Source: Cyclobacteriaceae bacterium
GTDB taxonomy: Bacteria; Bacteroidota; Bacteroidia; Cytophagales; Cyclobacteriaceae
Assembly: GCA_028281285.1 (NCBI GenBank)
Contig: JANQKF010000013.1
Span: forward strand, 186,001-250,000
Direction of reading: 5' to 3'
DNA: 64,000 bases
In this document: positions 12,263-32,155 of the stretch, piece after piece
Layout of the letters: each line of letters starts with the position of its first letter
How positions within the stretch are numbered: the first letter of the stretch is position 1
Program-made: the position numbers and the translations under genes
The notes under the pieces: model-generated
What the model saw: the letters and a program-made list of their open reading frames with translations, nothing else
What the model was told of the DNA's origin: nothing
Database searches by the model: none

Positions 12263-13507
12263 TCAATTATTTATCCAAGCCTGAAGTTTTTTTTCAAGGA
12301 ACCTTCGTTCTGTCTGATTCTGAGCCTGACGAATGGCCAACGAAACATGATATCGGGCTTTATTCCAATTCCCGGTTTTCGCATAAAGATCTGCCTTAAG
12401 GGCTTCAAAGGACTGATTCCCGCCAATATCTCCTTCAATTTTCTCCATCTCTTCCAATGCCACTTTTGGCCCATTGAGTTTGCTTAAAACCACAATACGA
12501 CTCATTTTGACAACTGGAATAGGCTTGATTTCAACCAAAACATCATAGAGACCCAATATTTGCTTCCAGTTGGTTTCCTCGTAGGTCGCTGCGTTAGAGT
12601 AATAGCTGGCAATAGCAGCTTCGATTTGGTAGACAGACCTTCCCGGAAATTGTGAGGATTTCTGTAAAAACCGCCAGCCATATTCAATATAGTCTTTTCG
12701 CCATAAGGACCGATCCTGAAATTGAAGTGTGAGCAGATTTCCCTCCTTGTCTGTTCGTGCCGGAAACCTCGCAGCCTTAAAGAGCATCATTGAAATCAGT
12801 GCATTCAACTCACCAGTATTACAAGACTCTTCATTCAAAAGCAGAAATGCCATTCGTATGGCCTCTTCGCTAATGTCATTCTTAATGAGCTTTTCTCCAC
12901 TTGTGGCTTTATATCCTTCATTAAATAAAAGATAAATCACTTGAAGCACTGCCGAGAGTCTCTCCTTGACTGCATCTCCTTTAGGCACATTTAAATCACC
13001 TACATCATTCTTAAATTTCGTCTTTGCCCTGGTGATCGCCTTTTTTGTTGCCTCTTCATTCTTCAGAAGTGCTCTGGCAATTTCCTTTACACTCAAGCCG
13101 CATAATAATTTGAGGCTGAGCATTAATTGCTCCTGGGGTTTCATTGAGGGATGGCAGCAAGCAAAAATCATTTTAAGCTGCTCGTCCTTAATCGCTTCTT
13201 CATCCATTTCCAACATCACATCCTCTGATCTATTTTCATTTACACCTTCCCAAGCCACACTTTTCTTCTCCCTCCTCAGAGTATCGATTAATTTATTGCC
13301 AGCCACACGATAGAGCCATGCAGAGGGGTTATCAGGCATAGGTTTATAGGCCCATATCTTGGCGGCTTTATAAAGCGCCTCCTGAACCGCATCCTCAACA
13401 AGATCGATCATAGATGATGAATATTTGTTAGTAAGCAAGGCAACAAGCTTGCTATATTCATATCTGAACAAGTGATCGAGCTTACGGGAAAGGTTAATTT
13501 CTTCCAT
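12263..13507 (-). CDS. ECF42-type RNA polymerase sigma factor with long C-terminal extension
   Basis: This protein is 414 residues, about twice a minimal ECF sigma. It has sigma-2 (DLVEDAVQEALYKA, WLYRVAGNKLIDTLRR), a sigma-4 helix-turn-helix (LCGLSVKEIARALLKNEEATKKAITRAK), and then a C-terminal extension of about 220 residues that is helical and TPR-like (LYAKTGNWNKARYHVSLAI near the end). That layout is typical of the ECF42 group, whose genes sit beside YCII/DGPF genes. The neighbour immediately upstream is such a gene. These sigma factors have no classical anti-sigma factor; the extension is thought to control activity. A terminator-like hairpin lies directly before its ATG. Confidence 0.87.
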   Translation of the reverse strand: MEEINLSRKLDHLFRYEYSKLVALLTNKYSSSMIDLVEDAVQEALYKAAKIWAYKPMPDNPSAWLYRVAGNKLIDTLRREKKSVAWEGVNENRSEDVMLEMDEEAIKDEQLKMIFACCHPSMKPQEQLMLSLKLLCGLSVKEIARALLKNEEATKKAITRAKTKFKNDVGDLNVPKGDAVKERLSAVLQVIYLLFNEGYKATSGEKLIKNDISEEAIRMAFLLLNEESCNTGELNALISMMLFKAARFPARTDKEGNLLTLQFQDRSLWRKDYIEYGWRFLQKSSQFPGRSVYQIEAAIASYYSNAATYEETNWKQILGLYDVLVEIKPIPVVKMSRIVVLSKLNGPKVALEEMEKIEGDIGGNQSFEALKADLYAKTGNWNKARYHVSLAIRQAQNQTERRFLEKKLQAWINN

Positions 13508-17286: not shown

Positions 17287-18675
17287 TTATCGGTGCCGGA
17301 TAAACTGAAGCCCAAAACCATATGGAGTTATTTCTGCTGGTCTATCACCAAAGTTCCGATTCAGCCCATAATATCCGTACGGTCTAATTAGCCATTGAAA
17401 TCTACCCCGTGTCCGTGGAGAAAATGTGAAGCCAAGATTTAGTGTCCATAGCCCTGTTGGATAACTAAGCAATGTATTGTCCTCAAATTCATTGATCAAT
17501 GCATTTTCATAAGTTAGCAGGATATCCAATGCTCTACGCTTAACGTCATCATTATCTATTTGATAGATCATCCCGATAGCTCCTCCAAATGATAAGGCAT
17601 TGAATTTCCCCTCGAATTCTCTGAATTGGTTTTCGCCTTGAGGGACATAGCTCAATTGGATATTGAACCTTCTATAACGGGCAAATACCTGGTTCTTTAA
17701 CCAAAAACGACCGTCCAAATGAAACCACATGTCATAGCCTATTGACATCCCCAAACGTTGAGCGGAAAGGTCAATATCTGATTTACCCTTCTCAAATAGA
17801 ATATCATCTTCCTTATTCGGCCTAATGATACTGTAGTTCATCTGAAAGCCAAAATTCAGTCGCAATAAGAATTTGGATGGTCTGGCTTTAAGAATCGTGC
17901 CTCCTTGAGACTGGAAATCAGGAAATGGGGTCAAATAGTGATCCCATAAATCAATCTTGGAGACTGTTGATTCGGGTTTTCTTGAACCTTCGGTTACAAG
18001 CATTTCAAGGGGTCTTCGTACAAACTCCGGACTTGAAGTCTTAAATTCCACATTCGTTGTTGAAGTGTCAGATATCACTTGGCGTTGCGATAAGATTTCC
18101 GATGCTTTCGGATCTTCAGACAGGAAGACCTTCCTTTCCTTCAATTCCTCAATCACTTCAACCTCACTTGTCTGGATATCGATAGCAGAAGCTTGTTTGG
18201 GCAAATCGGCCGTTAGGACTTGGGTGGACTCTTTGAGAGTGTCAATACTCAATCGTTTTGATTTATCCGTTGCATCTGACTTGATATCATCAATTATTTC
18301 AGACCCTACACTACCAGTATCTTTCGCCATTAAAGGAGTCGCAGACTTAGATTCTGAAATGGATTTTTTCTCAAGCTGTATCTTTCCATTATCCAATGGA
18401 TCATTCGTCTTTCCCTTCCGGATTTCCACTTCATTCGGTTCCTGCTCCAGATTAGCCTCTTGTGAAGAATTTGATCGAAGATACAAGCCACTCAATCCGG
18501 CTATCAATATCAATGAAAACAGTGCCCATAGCAACCATCTTCTTTTTGATCTTTCATTTGTAGAAGCCCCTATTTCACCTGCAATCACCTCCCAAAGCCC
18601 TTCGTCCACGGGAGCCTCAAATTGATCAAATTTTGACCTGATTGTGCCGAATGCTTTATCCATAGAACTGCTCAT
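17287..18675 (-). CDS. Putative dual-membrane anti-sigma factor: inner-membrane helix, long periplasmic linker, C-terminal outer-membrane beta-barrel
   Basis: The ORF has 462 residues. Residues 1-45 are soluble and resemble the cytoplasmic start of anti-sigma factors (MDKAFGTIRSKFDQFEAPVDEGLW). Residues 46-66 (RWLLWALFSLILIAGLSGLYL) are one strong transmembrane helix. Residues 67-265 are a polar Ser/Thr/Asp/Glu-rich linker without clear fold. Residues 268-462 alternate hydrophobic and polar in about eight strands, like PorT-type outer-membrane barrels (LRLNFGFQMNYSI, FGGAIGMIYQI, IRPYGYYGLNRNF). The gene overlaps the upstream ECF sigma gene; the ATG at 18663 gives an ATGGATAA overlap, and an ATG at 18675 is also possible. 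The layout matches, from memory, the Dma (dual membrane-spanning anti-sigma) proteins reported in Bacteroides. Confidence 0.72.
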   Translation of the reverse strand: MSSSMDKAFGTIRSKFDQFEAPVDEGLWEVIAGEIGASTNERSKRRWLLWALFSLILIAGLSGLYLRSNSSQEANLEQEPNEVEIRKGKTNDPLDNGKIQLEKKSISESKSATPLMAKDTGSVGSEIIDDIKSDATDKSKRLSIDTLKESTQVLTADLPKQASAIDIQTSEVEVIEELKERKVFLSEDPKASEILSQRQVISDTSTTNVEFKTSSPEFVRRPLEMLVTEGSRKPESTVSKIDLWDHYLTPFPDFQSQGGTILKARPSKFLLRLNFGFQMNYSIIRPNKEDDILFEKGKSDIDLSAQRLGMSIGYDMWFHLDGRFWLKNQVFARYRRFNIQLSYVPQGENQFREFEGKFNALSFGGAIGMIYQIDNDDVKRRALDILLTYENALINEFEDNTLLSYPTGLWTLNLGFTFSPRTRGRFQWLIRPYGYYGLNRNFGDRPAEITPYGFGLQFIRHR

Positions 18676-19210
18676 CGACTTCAGTTTTTTTTAGTAACTC
18701 TATCATGTTTCGTTTTCCCCTGGTCAATAATACCCGGGAAGTGCTCTCTGCAATATCCAGCCTTTGAGCAATCTCCTTATGGCTGTATCCATCAATTGTA
18801 AAAAGGTTGAATACTATTTGCTGATTGTCTGGTAACTGTTGAAGTAACATTACTACCTCCTCGGCTTTCAATTTTTCGAAAGCGTTCGCGTCTGTGTCCT
18901 TAAACTCAGGAACATCCTCATTGTCCAGGCTCACATGAAGCTGAGATCTTCTTTTCTTATAAGCATCTATTGCTGAATTTGTGGCGATCCTTCGCACCCA
19001 AGCTTCAAAATTGCTCACATTAGCAGCCTGATCAATATTTTTGAACAGACGAATCATGGCTTCCTGAAATACGTCATTGGCATCTTCCTGCATTTTATTA
19101 TATCGCAGACAAATCCCCATAAGTCTTCCTTTGAGCATATCATATAACTCACGTTGCGACTTAGAGTCACCCGCAATGCATCGCTCAATCAAATCCTTAT
19201 ACTCCAGCAT
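18656..19210 (-). CDS. ECF sigma factor paired with the dual-membrane anti-sigma candidate
   Basis: A 184-residue ECF sigma factor. Sigma-2 has MQEDANDVFQEAMIRLFKNI and FEAWVRRIATNSAIDAYKKRRSQ. Sigma-4 has LLQQLPDNQQIVFNLFTIDGYSHKEIAQRLDIAESTSRVLLTRGKRNMIELL. The family recruits RNA polymerase to stress or envelope promoters once released from its anti-sigma factor. The next gene overlaps its end and encodes the candidate anti-sigma factor. The ATG at 19210 (MLEYKDLIERCIAGD) fits family starts. It is probably autoregulated, but the upstream region shows no promoter I can assign. Confidence 0.92.
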   Translation of the reverse strand: MLEYKDLIERCIAGDSKSQRELYDMLKGRLMGICLRYNKMQEDANDVFQEAMIRLFKNIDQAANVSNFEAWVRRIATNSAIDAYKKRRSQLHVSLDNEDVPEFKDTDANAFEKLKAEEVVMLLQQLPDNQQIVFNLFTIDGYSHKEIAQRLDIAESTSRVLLTRGKRNMIELLKKTEVDEQFYG

Positions 19211-19579
19211 ATTCGATTCAGAGGTCTCAAAAAAAGGTCTACTTCGAAGCCTCTATGGCGATCAGATTTGTCTACCCAGTATTACTGTCAATCAGATGTC
19301 GAAGAGTTTGGACACAGATTAATAAACCTGATTCTGTCAGTTACTTACTTTAACTGACTTTGATTAGATAAGAAACGCTTCATTGCGACTCAATTTTTAA
19401 TCGATTCGGCTAAGCATACTTGGCAAAGTGTATCAAAATCTGTTAGGAACGTTCATATAATTGATTATTCAATAATGGCCAGAAAAATTTTTCAGCTTCA
19501 TTGAAGCGTTTGATAAAGGGAAACAGTCTTAATGTTCAGAGAGGTAATGCCGACTGTTTTTGAATTAAACCTTTTAAGA
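19211..19579. other. 369-bp intergenic region between ECF sigma and kelch lipoprotein genes
   Basis: No gene of convincing size is seen. The region must hold the divergent promoters of the sigma gene and the lipoprotein gene. A perfect inverted repeat is at 19336-19358 and AGGTCT occurs twice near 19224-19243. No strong TTTG/TAnnTTTG promoter pair stands out, which fits ECF-dependent transcription, though this is inference. Confidence 0.5.
19336..19358. repeat. Perfect inverted repeat, operator or hairpin of unknown role
   Basis: Arms GTCAGTTA (19336-19343) and TAACTGAC (19351-19358) match perfectly around a 7-bp spacer. It lies 125 bp upstream of the sigma start and 222 bp upstream of the lipoprotein start. 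The sequence after it (TTTGATTAG) is not a good T-run, so it is more likely a protein-binding site than a terminator. Confidence 0.4.
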
Positions 19580-20620
19580 ATGCAACGATTAAAAAAATTA
19601 ACTGTACTAACCTTATTTGCCGGATTGCTTTGGTCCTGTGATGTCGTCAATGATGATGAGATTCCAGTGCAAGGGGTAGATGGTGGTATTGAAGAGCTAA
19701 GTTTTTCTGCTCTCACTACTGTTACCGGTACATTCTCAGGACAAGATATCGCCTTAGTTGGGGATACTACTACCAACAGCCTATACCTTGCATACAAAGT
19801 GTTTGCAGAGCCAACAAGCGATATTCATCCAGTAGTGATTAAGAAAATTGAAGTCTCTACGAGGCAAGAATCGATATTCTCATATCAGCCACAGGCATCC
19901 AGCACTTCGTCCAGGCAGCTTTTAATCGCAGGGGACAAACTTCATGTCGTATCGGGTAGGGCCATTTATTCTTATGATTTCCCTTTAGTTGAAGACGGCC
20001 CCGTTAATGAAGTCAATACAAATACTTTGATGAGTCGATTTGGTGCATTTTATCGAAATGGAAATATCTATACGCTTGGTGGAGAGGGAGGCGTAATCCC
20101 GGAACCCGATCAAATCGGGGACAATATTAGTTTATGGAATATCGAGTCGGAGTCATTTGACCAGGTAGCAACCCTGCCAAGTCCCAAGTACTGGGCCGAT
20201 GCACAGTTAATTGGTAATAAAGTCTATACTTTTGGTGGTCTGAAGTCATGGAATGATTTGAGCCATCCACAAAGTAGCATTTTCGCCTACGACTTCAGCA
20301 CGGACAATGTCGAAACTTACAGCCTACCAAAGGGAGTAAGCTGGACTTATACGGCCCTTTATGGCAACAAGATCATCGTGGGTGGCTTGATAAGGACAGG
20401 GGACGCTTCAAATGCCGATCTCGAGATTTTCCTTGGTGCATTTGATACTGCGACCAACCAATTCCAGGAAATCAACCATAATTTGGATGACAGTGACCTG
20501 AACACCATATGGGACATCGCCACAGTTAAAAACAAACTCTATGTTCTCCATGGAACAAGAGATCTTGGCACATTAACTCCTGTTAACTGGACTATTTTCG
20601 AAGCAGATTTAGATTTCTAA
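19580..20620 (+). CDS. Kelch-type beta-propeller lipoprotein
   Basis: The frame opens at 19532, but the ATG at 19580 gives a proper lipoprotein signal (MQRLKKLTVLTLFAGLLWSC, Cys at 20) and 346 residues. The body carries kelch-like blades with GGxx(G) and tyrosine or tryptophan signatures: FGAFYRNGNIYTLGGEGG, YWADAQLIGNKVYTFGGLKSW and YTALYGNKIIVGGL. It is thus a lipid-anchored propeller, probably facing the periplasm or cell surface. The ligand is unknown. It is a single-gene unit ended by the terminator at 20641-20667. It lies next to the ECF sigma gene and might be a target, which is unproven. Confidence 0.78.
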   Translation: MQRLKKLTVLTLFAGLLWSCDVVNDDEIPVQGVDGGIEELSFSALTTVTGTFSGQDIALVGDTTTNSLYLAYKVFAEPTSDIHPVVIKKIEVSTRQESIFSYQPQASSTSSRQLLIAGDKLHVVSGRAIYSYDFPLVEDGPVNEVNTNTLMSRFGAFYRNGNIYTLGGEGGVIPEPDQIGDNISLWNIESESFDQVATLPSPKYWADAQLIGNKVYTFGGLKSWNDLSHPQSSIFAYDFSTDNVETYSLPKGVSWTYTALYGNKIIVGGLIRTGDASNADLEIFLGAFDTATNQFQEINHNLDDSDLNTIWDIATVKNKLYVLHGTRDLGTLTPVNWTIFEADLDF

Positions 20621-31588: not shown

Positions 31589-32155
31589 TCAAGTTTTATT
31601 CATCAGATATTTGAGTTTGACCTTTGCGTTATAAATTCTTGATTTCACGGTGCCCAATGAGCTACCGACTATCAAGGCAATTTCATCATAGTCCATTCCT
31701 TCCAGAAAATTCAGAATCAGCACTTCACGATGCTTGTTCGGAAGTTTTTCAAGGTTCGATTCCAGAGTATTTTTCACTTCGTCAATGTCATCGACAGATT
31801 CTAATTCAGCTTTTTCTGATTCCTGATTAACCTTGTATACTTCCTCGAATTCGGAAATTCGCTTCGTCTTTCTGAAATAGTCGAGCGTTTTGTTTCTGGC
31901 CATTTGGAAAAGCCACATCCTAAAGGCCGAAGGGTTTGACAGGGTTTTAATTCGTTTATATACCGTCAACCAGACCTCTTGATTCAAATCCTCTCCCTCG
32001 TCATTGCCTACCACATTCCTTAGGTAGCGCAACGTTTTCGAACTGAAGTCCGAATAGAGTTCTCCAAAAGCTTGCTCATCACCTACCTGACATCTTAGCA
32101 CCAGAAAGTGCAGCTTCAAATCTTTAGACTCGTCAGACGCTTCTTCTCTACTCAT
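31589..32155 (-). CDS. ECF sigma factor (third in the window)
   Basis: A 188-residue ECF sigma factor. Sigma-2 has VVGNDEGEDLNQEVWLTVYKRI and FRMWLFQMARNKTLDYFRKTKRIS. Sigma-4 has LEKLPNKHREVLILNFLEGMDYDEIALIVGSSLGTVKSRIYNAKVKLKYLM. The N-terminus (MSREEASDESKD) is short and acidic. It is followed after 2 bp by a small membrane protein, a usual place for an anti-sigma factor. It is clearly distinct from the ECF42 and dual-membrane systems earlier in the window. Confidence 0.9.
   Translation of the reverse strand: MSREEASDESKDLKLHFLVLRCQVGDEQAFGELYSDFSSKTLRYLRNVVGNDEGEDLNQEVWLTVYKRIKTLSNPSAFRMWLFQMARNKTLDYFRKTKRISEFEEVYKVNQESEKAELESVDDIDEVKNTLESNLEKLPNKHREVLILNFLEGMDYDEIALIVGSSLGTVKSRIYNAKVKLKYLMNKT

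What the first reader, a model, noticed from the sequence alone, without database searches (positions are those of the whole stretch)
17287..19210. ECF sigma factor with a candidate dual-membrane-spanning anti-sigma factor
The protein at 17287-18675 appears to combine an N-terminal sigma-binding-like segment, one inner-membrane helix (46-66), a long disordered periplasmic linker (about 200 residues) and a C-terminal eight-strand outer-membrane barrel. It directly follows an ECF sigma factor (8-20 nt overlap). A single chain reaching from sigma factor to outer membrane would give a direct outer-membrane-to-transcription path. This architecture matches what I recall of the Dma proteins that control vesiculation in Bacteroides; I saw it here by reading the chain, not by search.
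Basis: partly seen in the sequence, partly recalled or inferred. Interest (0 to 1): 0.8.

Follow-up and report, generated by a model that had tools for sequence, protein, structure and literature searches.

The report
Sigma factor wired to outer membrane
A bacterium related to Roseivirga carries a gene switch whose brake appears to be one protein running from inside the cell to the outer membrane, and the switch seems to control little besides itself and one neighbouring surface lipoprotein; the protein design is already known from gut bacteria, but this copy, its likely promoter and its small set of targets appear to be new.

Summary
The 462-residue ORF (17287-18675, -) overlaps an ECF sigma gene (18656-19210, -) by 20 nt. 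AlphaFold2 gives N-terminal helices, one membrane helix (41-70), about 190 disordered residues and eight C-terminal strands (269-461); Foldseek returns outer-membrane barrels. It looks like, and is related to, the Dma/Reo anti-sigma factors of Bacteroidales: its first 66 residues match a Dma2-locus protein (E 2e-6), its barrel matches a Reo/Dma1-type protein (hhalign 97.9%), and its sigma factor falls in one supported clade with theirs. So it is a new member of a known kind, in a Roseivirga-like genome. New here: a candidate promoter, TGAAGCGTTT-N13-AGTC, occurs exactly twice in the 5.16 Mb genome, both beside the sigma gene, one facing the sigma operon and one a divergent kelch lipoprotein. 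Five relatives have a lipoprotein-sigma-anti-sigma operon behind this site (four exact, one variant); 12 same-genus genomes without the system have no exact site. I infer a largely private, self-activating circuit whose output is a surface lipoprotein. Sigma binding, membrane insertion, signal and release step are untested. In passing: related anti-sigma factors in other Bacteroidota end in a type IX secretion signal instead of a barrel.

The parts
18656..19210 (-). ECF sigma factor, 184 aa, cognate (Das-like) sigma
   Evidence: Pfam regions 2 and 4; same clade as the Das1-like and Das2-like sigma factors L201 and L202
17287..18675 (-). [quoted passage not shown]
18556..18675 (-). N-terminal sigma-binding-like domain (residues 1-40) with FEAPV....W..I motif
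   Evidence: helices 3-17 and 25-35, fair confidence; motif shared in A1, weakest in L007; BLASTP E 2e-6 to the Dma2-locus protein, the match including the membrane helix
18478..18534 (-). inner-membrane helix core (residues 48-66; model helix 41-70), basic residues before it, acidic residues after it
   Evidence: hydropathy, AlphaFold2, sequence
17884..18453 (-). disordered periplasmic linker (residues 75-264)
   Evidence: pLDDT blocks 29-44; poorly conserved
17293..17871 (-). C-terminal eight-stranded outer-membrane barrel (residues 269-461), prediction
   Evidence: end TPYGFGxQF shared by the closest relatives
19356..19382 (-). candidate cognate ECF promoter P1 (TGAAGCGTTT-N13-AGTC) facing the sigma/anti-sigma operon
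   Evidence: one of the two exact matches in the genome
19502..19528 (+). candidate cognate ECF promoter P2, same motif, facing the divergent lipoprotein
   Evidence: the other exact match in the genome; not used to derive the motif
19580..20620 (+). kelch-repeat lipoprotein (lipobox WSC, then CDVVNDDEIP), predicted output of the circuit; the longest ORF starts at 19532, the start at 19580 is my choice
   Evidence: Pfam Kelch_1 1.4e-6 on the ORF from 19532; P2 ends 51 nt before 19580; its mature N-terminus fits C[DN]x4DxxP, seen only in lipoproteins of this system (10 of 108 lipoprotein-like ORFs)

Best explanation
The locus is a self-contained outer-membrane-to-transcription circuit of the Dma/Reo kind. 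The anti-sigma factor holds its sigma factor at the cytoplasmic face through its N-terminal W-motif domain, crosses the inner membrane once, spans the periplasm with a disordered tether of about 190 residues and is anchored by an eight-stranded barrel in the outer membrane. A change at the outer membrane (ligand or partner on the barrel, barrel displacement, or failed barrel assembly) is passed down the chain, probably ending in proteolysis or release of the N-terminal domain, and frees the sigma factor. The sigma factor then acts at TGAAGCGTTT-N13-AGTC promoters, of which this genome has two exact copies: one for the sigma/anti-sigma operon (self-activation plus renewed brake) and one for the divergent kelch lipoprotein, the output. 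Shown by computation: predicted architecture, kinship to Dma-type proteins and their sigma factors, the motif and its positions. Inferred: sigma binding, membrane insertion, promoter use, signal, release step.
For: Architecture. N-terminal match to the Dma2-locus protein, E 2e-6 over 56 residues; family profile against the Reo/Dma1-type barrel 97.9%, E 3.3e-13, against 1.3% for a FecR protein (FecR confirmed by Pfam). Sigma tree: 60-row clade, support 99/95, holding the window sigma with L201, L202 and L205. Motif: a dyad shared by 4 of 8 upstream regions, at most 3 in each of 50 single-base shuffles; read out, the same spacing of 13 in 6 of those 8 (5 exact sites, L085 a variant). In 17 genomes 6 exact sites, all at this locus, in 4 of the 5 genomes given that have the system; 0 exact in the 12 same-genus genomes given that lack it (12 of the 15 that showed no relative). 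A second exact site in Roseivirga sp. E12 lies 26 nt before a PD40-propeller lipoprotein. Mature N-terminus C[DN]x4DxxP: 10 of 108 lipoprotein-like ORFs, all 10 beside a sigma gene of this clade, the window kelch protein among them (the pattern was first read from some of these). Precedents seen in passages: NigD is made when Reo is deleted (PMC13114119); Dma1/Das1 act through nigD1 (PMC13088901).
Against: No co-fold or binding data; the N-terminal domain is modelled at only fair confidence (blocks 50-74). The fused Dma3-like chain L205 matched the profile weakly (19.9%). Three of the 19 alignment rows (L064, L074, L083) align poorly to the barrel, L074 being a T9SS-tail protein. Two of 8 upstream regions (L059, L061) lack the motif and L085 has a variant. 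The barrel is not required in this sigma group: in a phylum sample 25 of 56 had a short partner, 22 a barrel-like one, 9 were long but unclear, by a rough home-made score. Matches with one mismatch are at chance level (39 matches in all, 6 of them exact, against 40 for the reversed pattern), so further, imperfect targets can be neither shown nor excluded.
Confidence: 0.77

Rival explanations
1. Assembly sensor: the barrel binds no ligand; the cell reads whether it has been folded and inserted. When the barrel-assembly machinery or outer membrane is disturbed, the barrel stays in the periplasm, the chain is degraded and the sigma factor is freed.
For: A comparable pair in Phocaeicola vulgatus, EcfO-Reo, is induced by the toxin BcpT and by bacteroidetocin A, which inhibits BamA (PMC9308784 and PMC13114119, passages).
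Against: That pair controls a wider stress response, whereas the circuit here seems to control one lipoprotein; a genome with up to five barrel-type copies would have redundant assembly sensors. Compatible with the best explanation and not separable from it by sequence.
Confidence: 0.4
2. Ordinary single-helix anti-sigma factor: the C-terminal domain may sit in the outer membrane but is cleaved off or slack, and regulation happens only at the inner membrane.
For: 25 of 56 partners of related sigma factors are short, without a barrel-like end, so head and helix alone can serve; the linker is long (75-264).
Against: The barrel is kept about as well as the N-terminal part (33-37% identity in the three closest same-genus relatives, against 34% for the two N-terminal matches reported), and related loci end in a different outer-membrane route, a T9SS signal.
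Confidence: 0.15
3. Positive partner: the protein activates rather than inhibits the sigma factor, as some FecR-type proteins do (recalled).
For: Direction of action is not visible in sequence.
Against: Loss of the related Reo, Dma1 and Dma2 proteins turns their regulons on (PMC9308784, PMC13114119, PMC13088901).
Confidence: 0.06

Closest known systems
Dma1/Das1 of Bacteroides thetaiotaomicron and EcfO-Reo of B. fragilis / Phocaeicola vulgatus
   Same: ECF sigma and anti-sigma with N-terminal domain, one helix, long tether, C-terminal barrel; a Bacteroidaceae locus of this type (L201) has its sigma factor in the same clade and a lipoprotein gene beside the locus (NigD there, kelch here)
   Different: Other lineage of Bacteroidota; the adjacent lipoprotein is a kelch or Ig-type protein, not NigD; exact promoter sites only at the locus, whereas the EcfO regulon includes three nigD genes; no vesiculation or oxygen data
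Dma2/Das2 (BT_1558/BT_1559)
   Same: Same architecture; direct N-terminal sequence match to the protein of a dma2-like locus (L202)
   Different: DUF4943, DUF4858 and nitronate monooxygenase neighbours not at this locus; reported effect on glycan-use loci not testable
Dma3 (sigma domain fused to the anti-sigma chain)
   Same: Same modules
   Different: Sigma is a separate protein here; only a weak profile match to the fused chain L205
FecA/FecR/FecI cell-surface signalling
   Same: Outer-membrane event controls an ECF sigma through an inner-membrane anti-sigma (recalled; search listings)
   Different: There three proteins pass the signal; here one chain would. A FecR protein does not match the profile

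Membership tests
[quoted passage not shown]
   BLASTP E 2e-6 (two-sequence comparison), 32% over 56 residues, to the Dma2-locus protein L202; the match includes the membrane helix. The profile comparison with L201 covered only the barrel
[quoted passage not shown]
   helix 41-70, hydropathy 48-66
[quoted passage not shown]
   residues 75-264, pLDDT blocks 29-44
[quoted passage not shown]
   eight strands, Foldseek to outer-membrane barrels; profile match to L201. Prediction only
[quoted passage not shown]
   Sigma factor is in one clade with the Das1-like and Das2-like sigma factors; no ECF21 model was available to score it
[quoted passage not shown]
   needs a deletion strain
[quoted passage not shown]
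   needs fractionation or imaging
Dma1/Dma2 functional role | controls vesiculation | not testable with these tools
   no claim made here
FecR-type anti-sigma factors | similarity to FecR proteins | tested here: not met
   hhalign 1.3% against the FecR protein of L207; no Pfam FecR hit up to E 1

The most novel reading that the evidence does not exclude
Bacteroidota use one sigma-binding head plus membrane helix as a plug-in and fit it with different devices that reach the outer membrane: a barrel (here), a type IX secretion signal (Bacteroidales and Flavobacteriales relatives) or none. The window copy is a closed loop in which the barrel senses, or is capped by, the very surface lipoprotein that the freed sigma factor makes, so that the circuit measures and sets its own surface product.
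Probability: 0.3. Interest if true: 0.72.

Novelty: new member of a known kind. Interest (0 to 1): 0.52.

Why it matters
How a signal gets from the outer membrane to transcription is usually a relay of several proteins. Dma-type proteins would do it with one chain, but the cases studied so far are in gut Bacteroidales and affect many genes. This copy comes with a predicted promoter and two predicted targets, which would make the one-chain idea testable with a simple reporter: one sigma factor, one brake, one lipoprotein. The related T9SS-tailed anti-sigma factors suggest that reaching the outer membrane is what is selected, whatever the device.

Tried and rejected
Scan of genome contigs with the single anti-sigma protein: 162 pattern matches, no relative; the scan with the sigma alignment worked. 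L006 was a false hit, a photolyase by its sequence. NF058625 (PG0214-type sigma family) was considered and rejected: the window sigma scores 95 bits against a cut-off of 130. I expected the barrel to be the rule for this sigma group; a phylum sample does not bear that out (22 barrel-like, 9 long but unclear, 25 short, of 56). That score is home-made and was tried only on 32 window ORFs and 14 ORFs of L201: the window anti-sigma ranks first of the 32, but 4 other window ORFs also pass the strand thresholds used (2 of them also pass the length limit), so 22 is a rough figure. The two propeller lipoproteins (window kelch, E12 PD40) are not detectably related by BLASTP (best E 0.48). The 5 one-mismatch promoter sites of the genome were looked at for neighbours and set aside as chance level. 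The divergent NigD/sigma region of L201 was printed but not analysed. Upstream lipoproteins: by the script, of 54 relatives with an upstream gene, 16 have one on the same strand within 350 nt and 2 a divergent one; 51 of 386 other genes pass the same lipobox test. By eye I add L064 and L076, missed by the script; the one at L071 lies 946 nt away. So the association is real in the Roseivirga-Emticicia-Cesiribacter part and absent in many others (for example Hymenobacter and Saprospiraceae rows). Paper searches: the rows listed (6 to 15 per search, of up to 2,317 papers) showed no report of this system in Roseivirga or of T9SS-tailed anti-sigma factors; the library lacks most subscription papers, so this is weak evidence of absence. 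The Dma1 paper (PNAS 2024) was not held and is known to me only through PMC13088901 and recall.

Full report
What is there. The sigma gene (18656-19210, -) carries ECF regions 2 and 4. The downstream ORF (17287-18675, -) overlaps it by 20 nt and has no family match of its own. The window is part of a 5.16 Mb genome. Three same-genus relatives with the system bear Roseivirga titles: G009 = L043, G007 = L085, G013 = L045, recognised by equal contig lengths and places.

Structure. An alignment of the window protein with 18 relatives from the search for related loci gave a model with two N-terminal helices of fair confidence, one long helix over the hydrophobic stretch, disorder from 75 to 264, and eight strands from 269 to 461 (14 of 20 ten-residue blocks at 81-96). 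Foldseek lists outer-membrane barrels; by target length the best are NspA, OmpA and OmpW (about 0.5), eight-stranded barrels (recalled). The strand count comes from the model, not from Foldseek, because larger barrels also score. Basic residues before the helix and acidic ones after it fit an N-in topology (sequence; inference). About 190 disordered residues have a contour length near 70 nm (arithmetic at 0.36 nm per residue), ample for a periplasm of about 20-25 nm (recalled figure).

Is it a Dma protein? PMC13088901 (abstract, introduction, discussion, part 1 of the reference list and passages seen) describes Dma proteins by four parts and ECF21 sigma partners. I sought Bacteroidales counterparts in the genomes behind L105 (titled Mediterranea sp.) and L097 (Bacteroidales) with the sigma profile and read the surroundings of seven of the matches. 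L202 has DUF4943, DUF4858 and nitronate monooxygenase genes, as the paper describes for the dma2 locus. L201 has a divergent NigD lipoprotein, which fits the EcfO-Reo/Dma1 type. L205 is one chain with sigma regions, a helix and barrel-like strands (the last by eye), like Dma3. The window protein's first 66 residues match the L202 protein at E 2e-6. The family profile matches the L201 barrel at 97.9%, L205 weakly (19.9%) and a FecR protein not at all (1.3%). In a 109-row sigma tree the window sigma lies in a 60-row clade (99/95) with L201, L202 and L205; 32 of the 40 sigma factors of this genome in the tree, and the Bacillota rows, fall outside. The named rows of that clade are Bacteroidota except L044, titled Rhodobacteraceae, which nests among Roseivirga rows and is probably a mis-binned contig. 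So it is a member by the sequence and structure features I could test; ECF21 itself I could not score. Earlier papers describe the same design as reaching from cytoplasm to outer membrane or surface (PMC9308784 and PMC13114119, passages), so the design is not new.

How common. The genome has 43 ECF matches, seven of which score above 100 bits with the sigma profile; 40 of the 43 were read for partners. The tree adds an eighth, L178, to the clade, on a long branch. Of the seven partners, five are long with ends that look barrel-like (L161-L164, L167): L161 by model; OMP_b-brl_2 is over its cut-off for L162, below it for L164 and L167, and absent for L163, which I judge by eye. L165 is short and followed by two proteins with signal-peptide-like starts; L166 is short with no such neighbour in the stretch read. 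In 61 phylum genomes, the window's included, 17 had sigma matches at E<=1e-28. All 56 such places outside the window genome, in 16 genomes, were fetched; each had a downstream ORF on the same strand, 22 barrel-like, 9 long but unclear, 25 short.

Promoter and regulon. A dyad scan of eight upstream regions found a pair shared by four, against at most three in each of 50 shuffles. Read out, it is TGAAGCGTTT, 13 bases, AGTC: exact in five regions, a variant in L085, not seen in L059 and L061. The whole genome has two exact copies, both between the sigma gene and the divergent lipoprotein, one facing each. About 0.04 would be expected by arithmetic with equal base frequencies. Only the sigma-facing copy had been used to find the motif. 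Across 17 genomes there are six exact copies, all at this locus, in four of the five genomes with the system that were given, and none in the 12 same-genus genomes without it that were given; matches with up to one mismatch total 39 against 40 for the reversed pattern. In E12 the second copy ends 26 nt before a PD40-propeller lipoprotein. In L043, L044, L045, L046 and L085 a lipoprotein lies just upstream of the sigma gene on the same strand, downstream of the motif, with Big_9 (Ig-like) matches, over the cut-off in L044, L045 and L046 and just below it in L043 and L085.

A second link between the kelch protein and the system. The mature ends of these lipoproteins follow C[DN]x4DxxP. Of 108 different lipoprotein-like ORFs in the loci scanned, 10 fit: nine upstream of a sigma gene of this clade in relatives, and the window kelch protein. 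I wrote the pattern after seeing several of these, so the ten are not independent of it; that none of the other 98 fits is the test. The window thus seems to have the same kind of lipoprotein partner with a kelch body, moved to a divergent promoter. The likely output is a surface lipoprotein, in parallel to NigD for EcfO-Reo.

Mechanism. Head holds sigma; chain crosses both membranes; an outer-membrane event frees sigma; sigma fires its two promoters. Binding, sensing and release are inferred from the Bacteroidales cases. Ligand sensing, lipoprotein capping and assembly sensing cannot be told apart from sequence.

Side finding. Anti-sigma genes at L208-L217 (the ten loci returned, all ten) follow a sigma gene and have an N-terminal tryptophan motif, one helix and a C-terminal stretch like the T9SS type B signal. 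Pfam CHU_C is over its cut-off in all eight of these ten that were scanned (L203, the same gene as L208, and L209, L210, L211, L213, L214, L216, L217), and in L097, L074 and L084; L098 was scanned with NCBIfam only, below the cut-off. Nine of the ten genomes have SprA_N; G274 shows none. The paper searches named in Tried and rejected listed no report of it.

Noticed in passing
L203:2692-3492 (= L208), L097:5535-6365, L098:5539-6369, L074:5530-6654, L084:5525-6736, L209-L217: Anti-sigma factors with the same kind of head and membrane helix end in a T9SS type B sorting domain (CHU_C up to 7e-23; L074 and L084 with a PKD domain before it) instead of a barrel; the sigma factors placed in the tree (L074, L084, L097, L098, L203) lie in the same 60-row clade; SprA_N found in 9 of the 10 genomes of L208-L217.
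   Followed up: partly
L115:5480-6742 (titled Ignavibacteriota), L118:5481-6731 (titled bacterium): ECF sigma (L115 outside the 60-row clade; L118 not in the tree) followed by a protein with a different N-terminus, a helix at 114-132 and, by eye, a barrel-like end; no Pfam or NCBIfam hit for L115; perhaps an independent origin of the design.
   Followed up: partly
L165:3118-5950 (same genome): Related sigma/anti-sigma pair whose anti-sigma factor (270 aa) lacks the barrel but is followed by two proteins of about 320 aa with signal-peptide-like starts, possibly barrels (by eye; the first has no Pfam or NCBIfam hit, the second was not scanned).
   Followed up: no
L044: Contig titled Rhodobacteraceae carries the Roseivirga-type locus and its promoter; probably mis-binned.
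   Followed up: no
L202:3097-4155: Dma2-type anti-sigma gene that appears broken by a frame change in this assembly; described only.
   Followed up: no
window about 31589-32155 and 12263-13507: Two further ECF-type sigma genes in the window, not in the high-scoring group of this finding; the first is followed by a 125-aa protein with two hydrophobic stretches.
   Followed up: no
window 19336-19358: A perfect 8-base inverted repeat with a 7-base gap (GTCAGTTA ... TAACTGAC) overlaps the AGTC element of P1; perhaps an operator for a second regulator, not followed.
   Followed up: no
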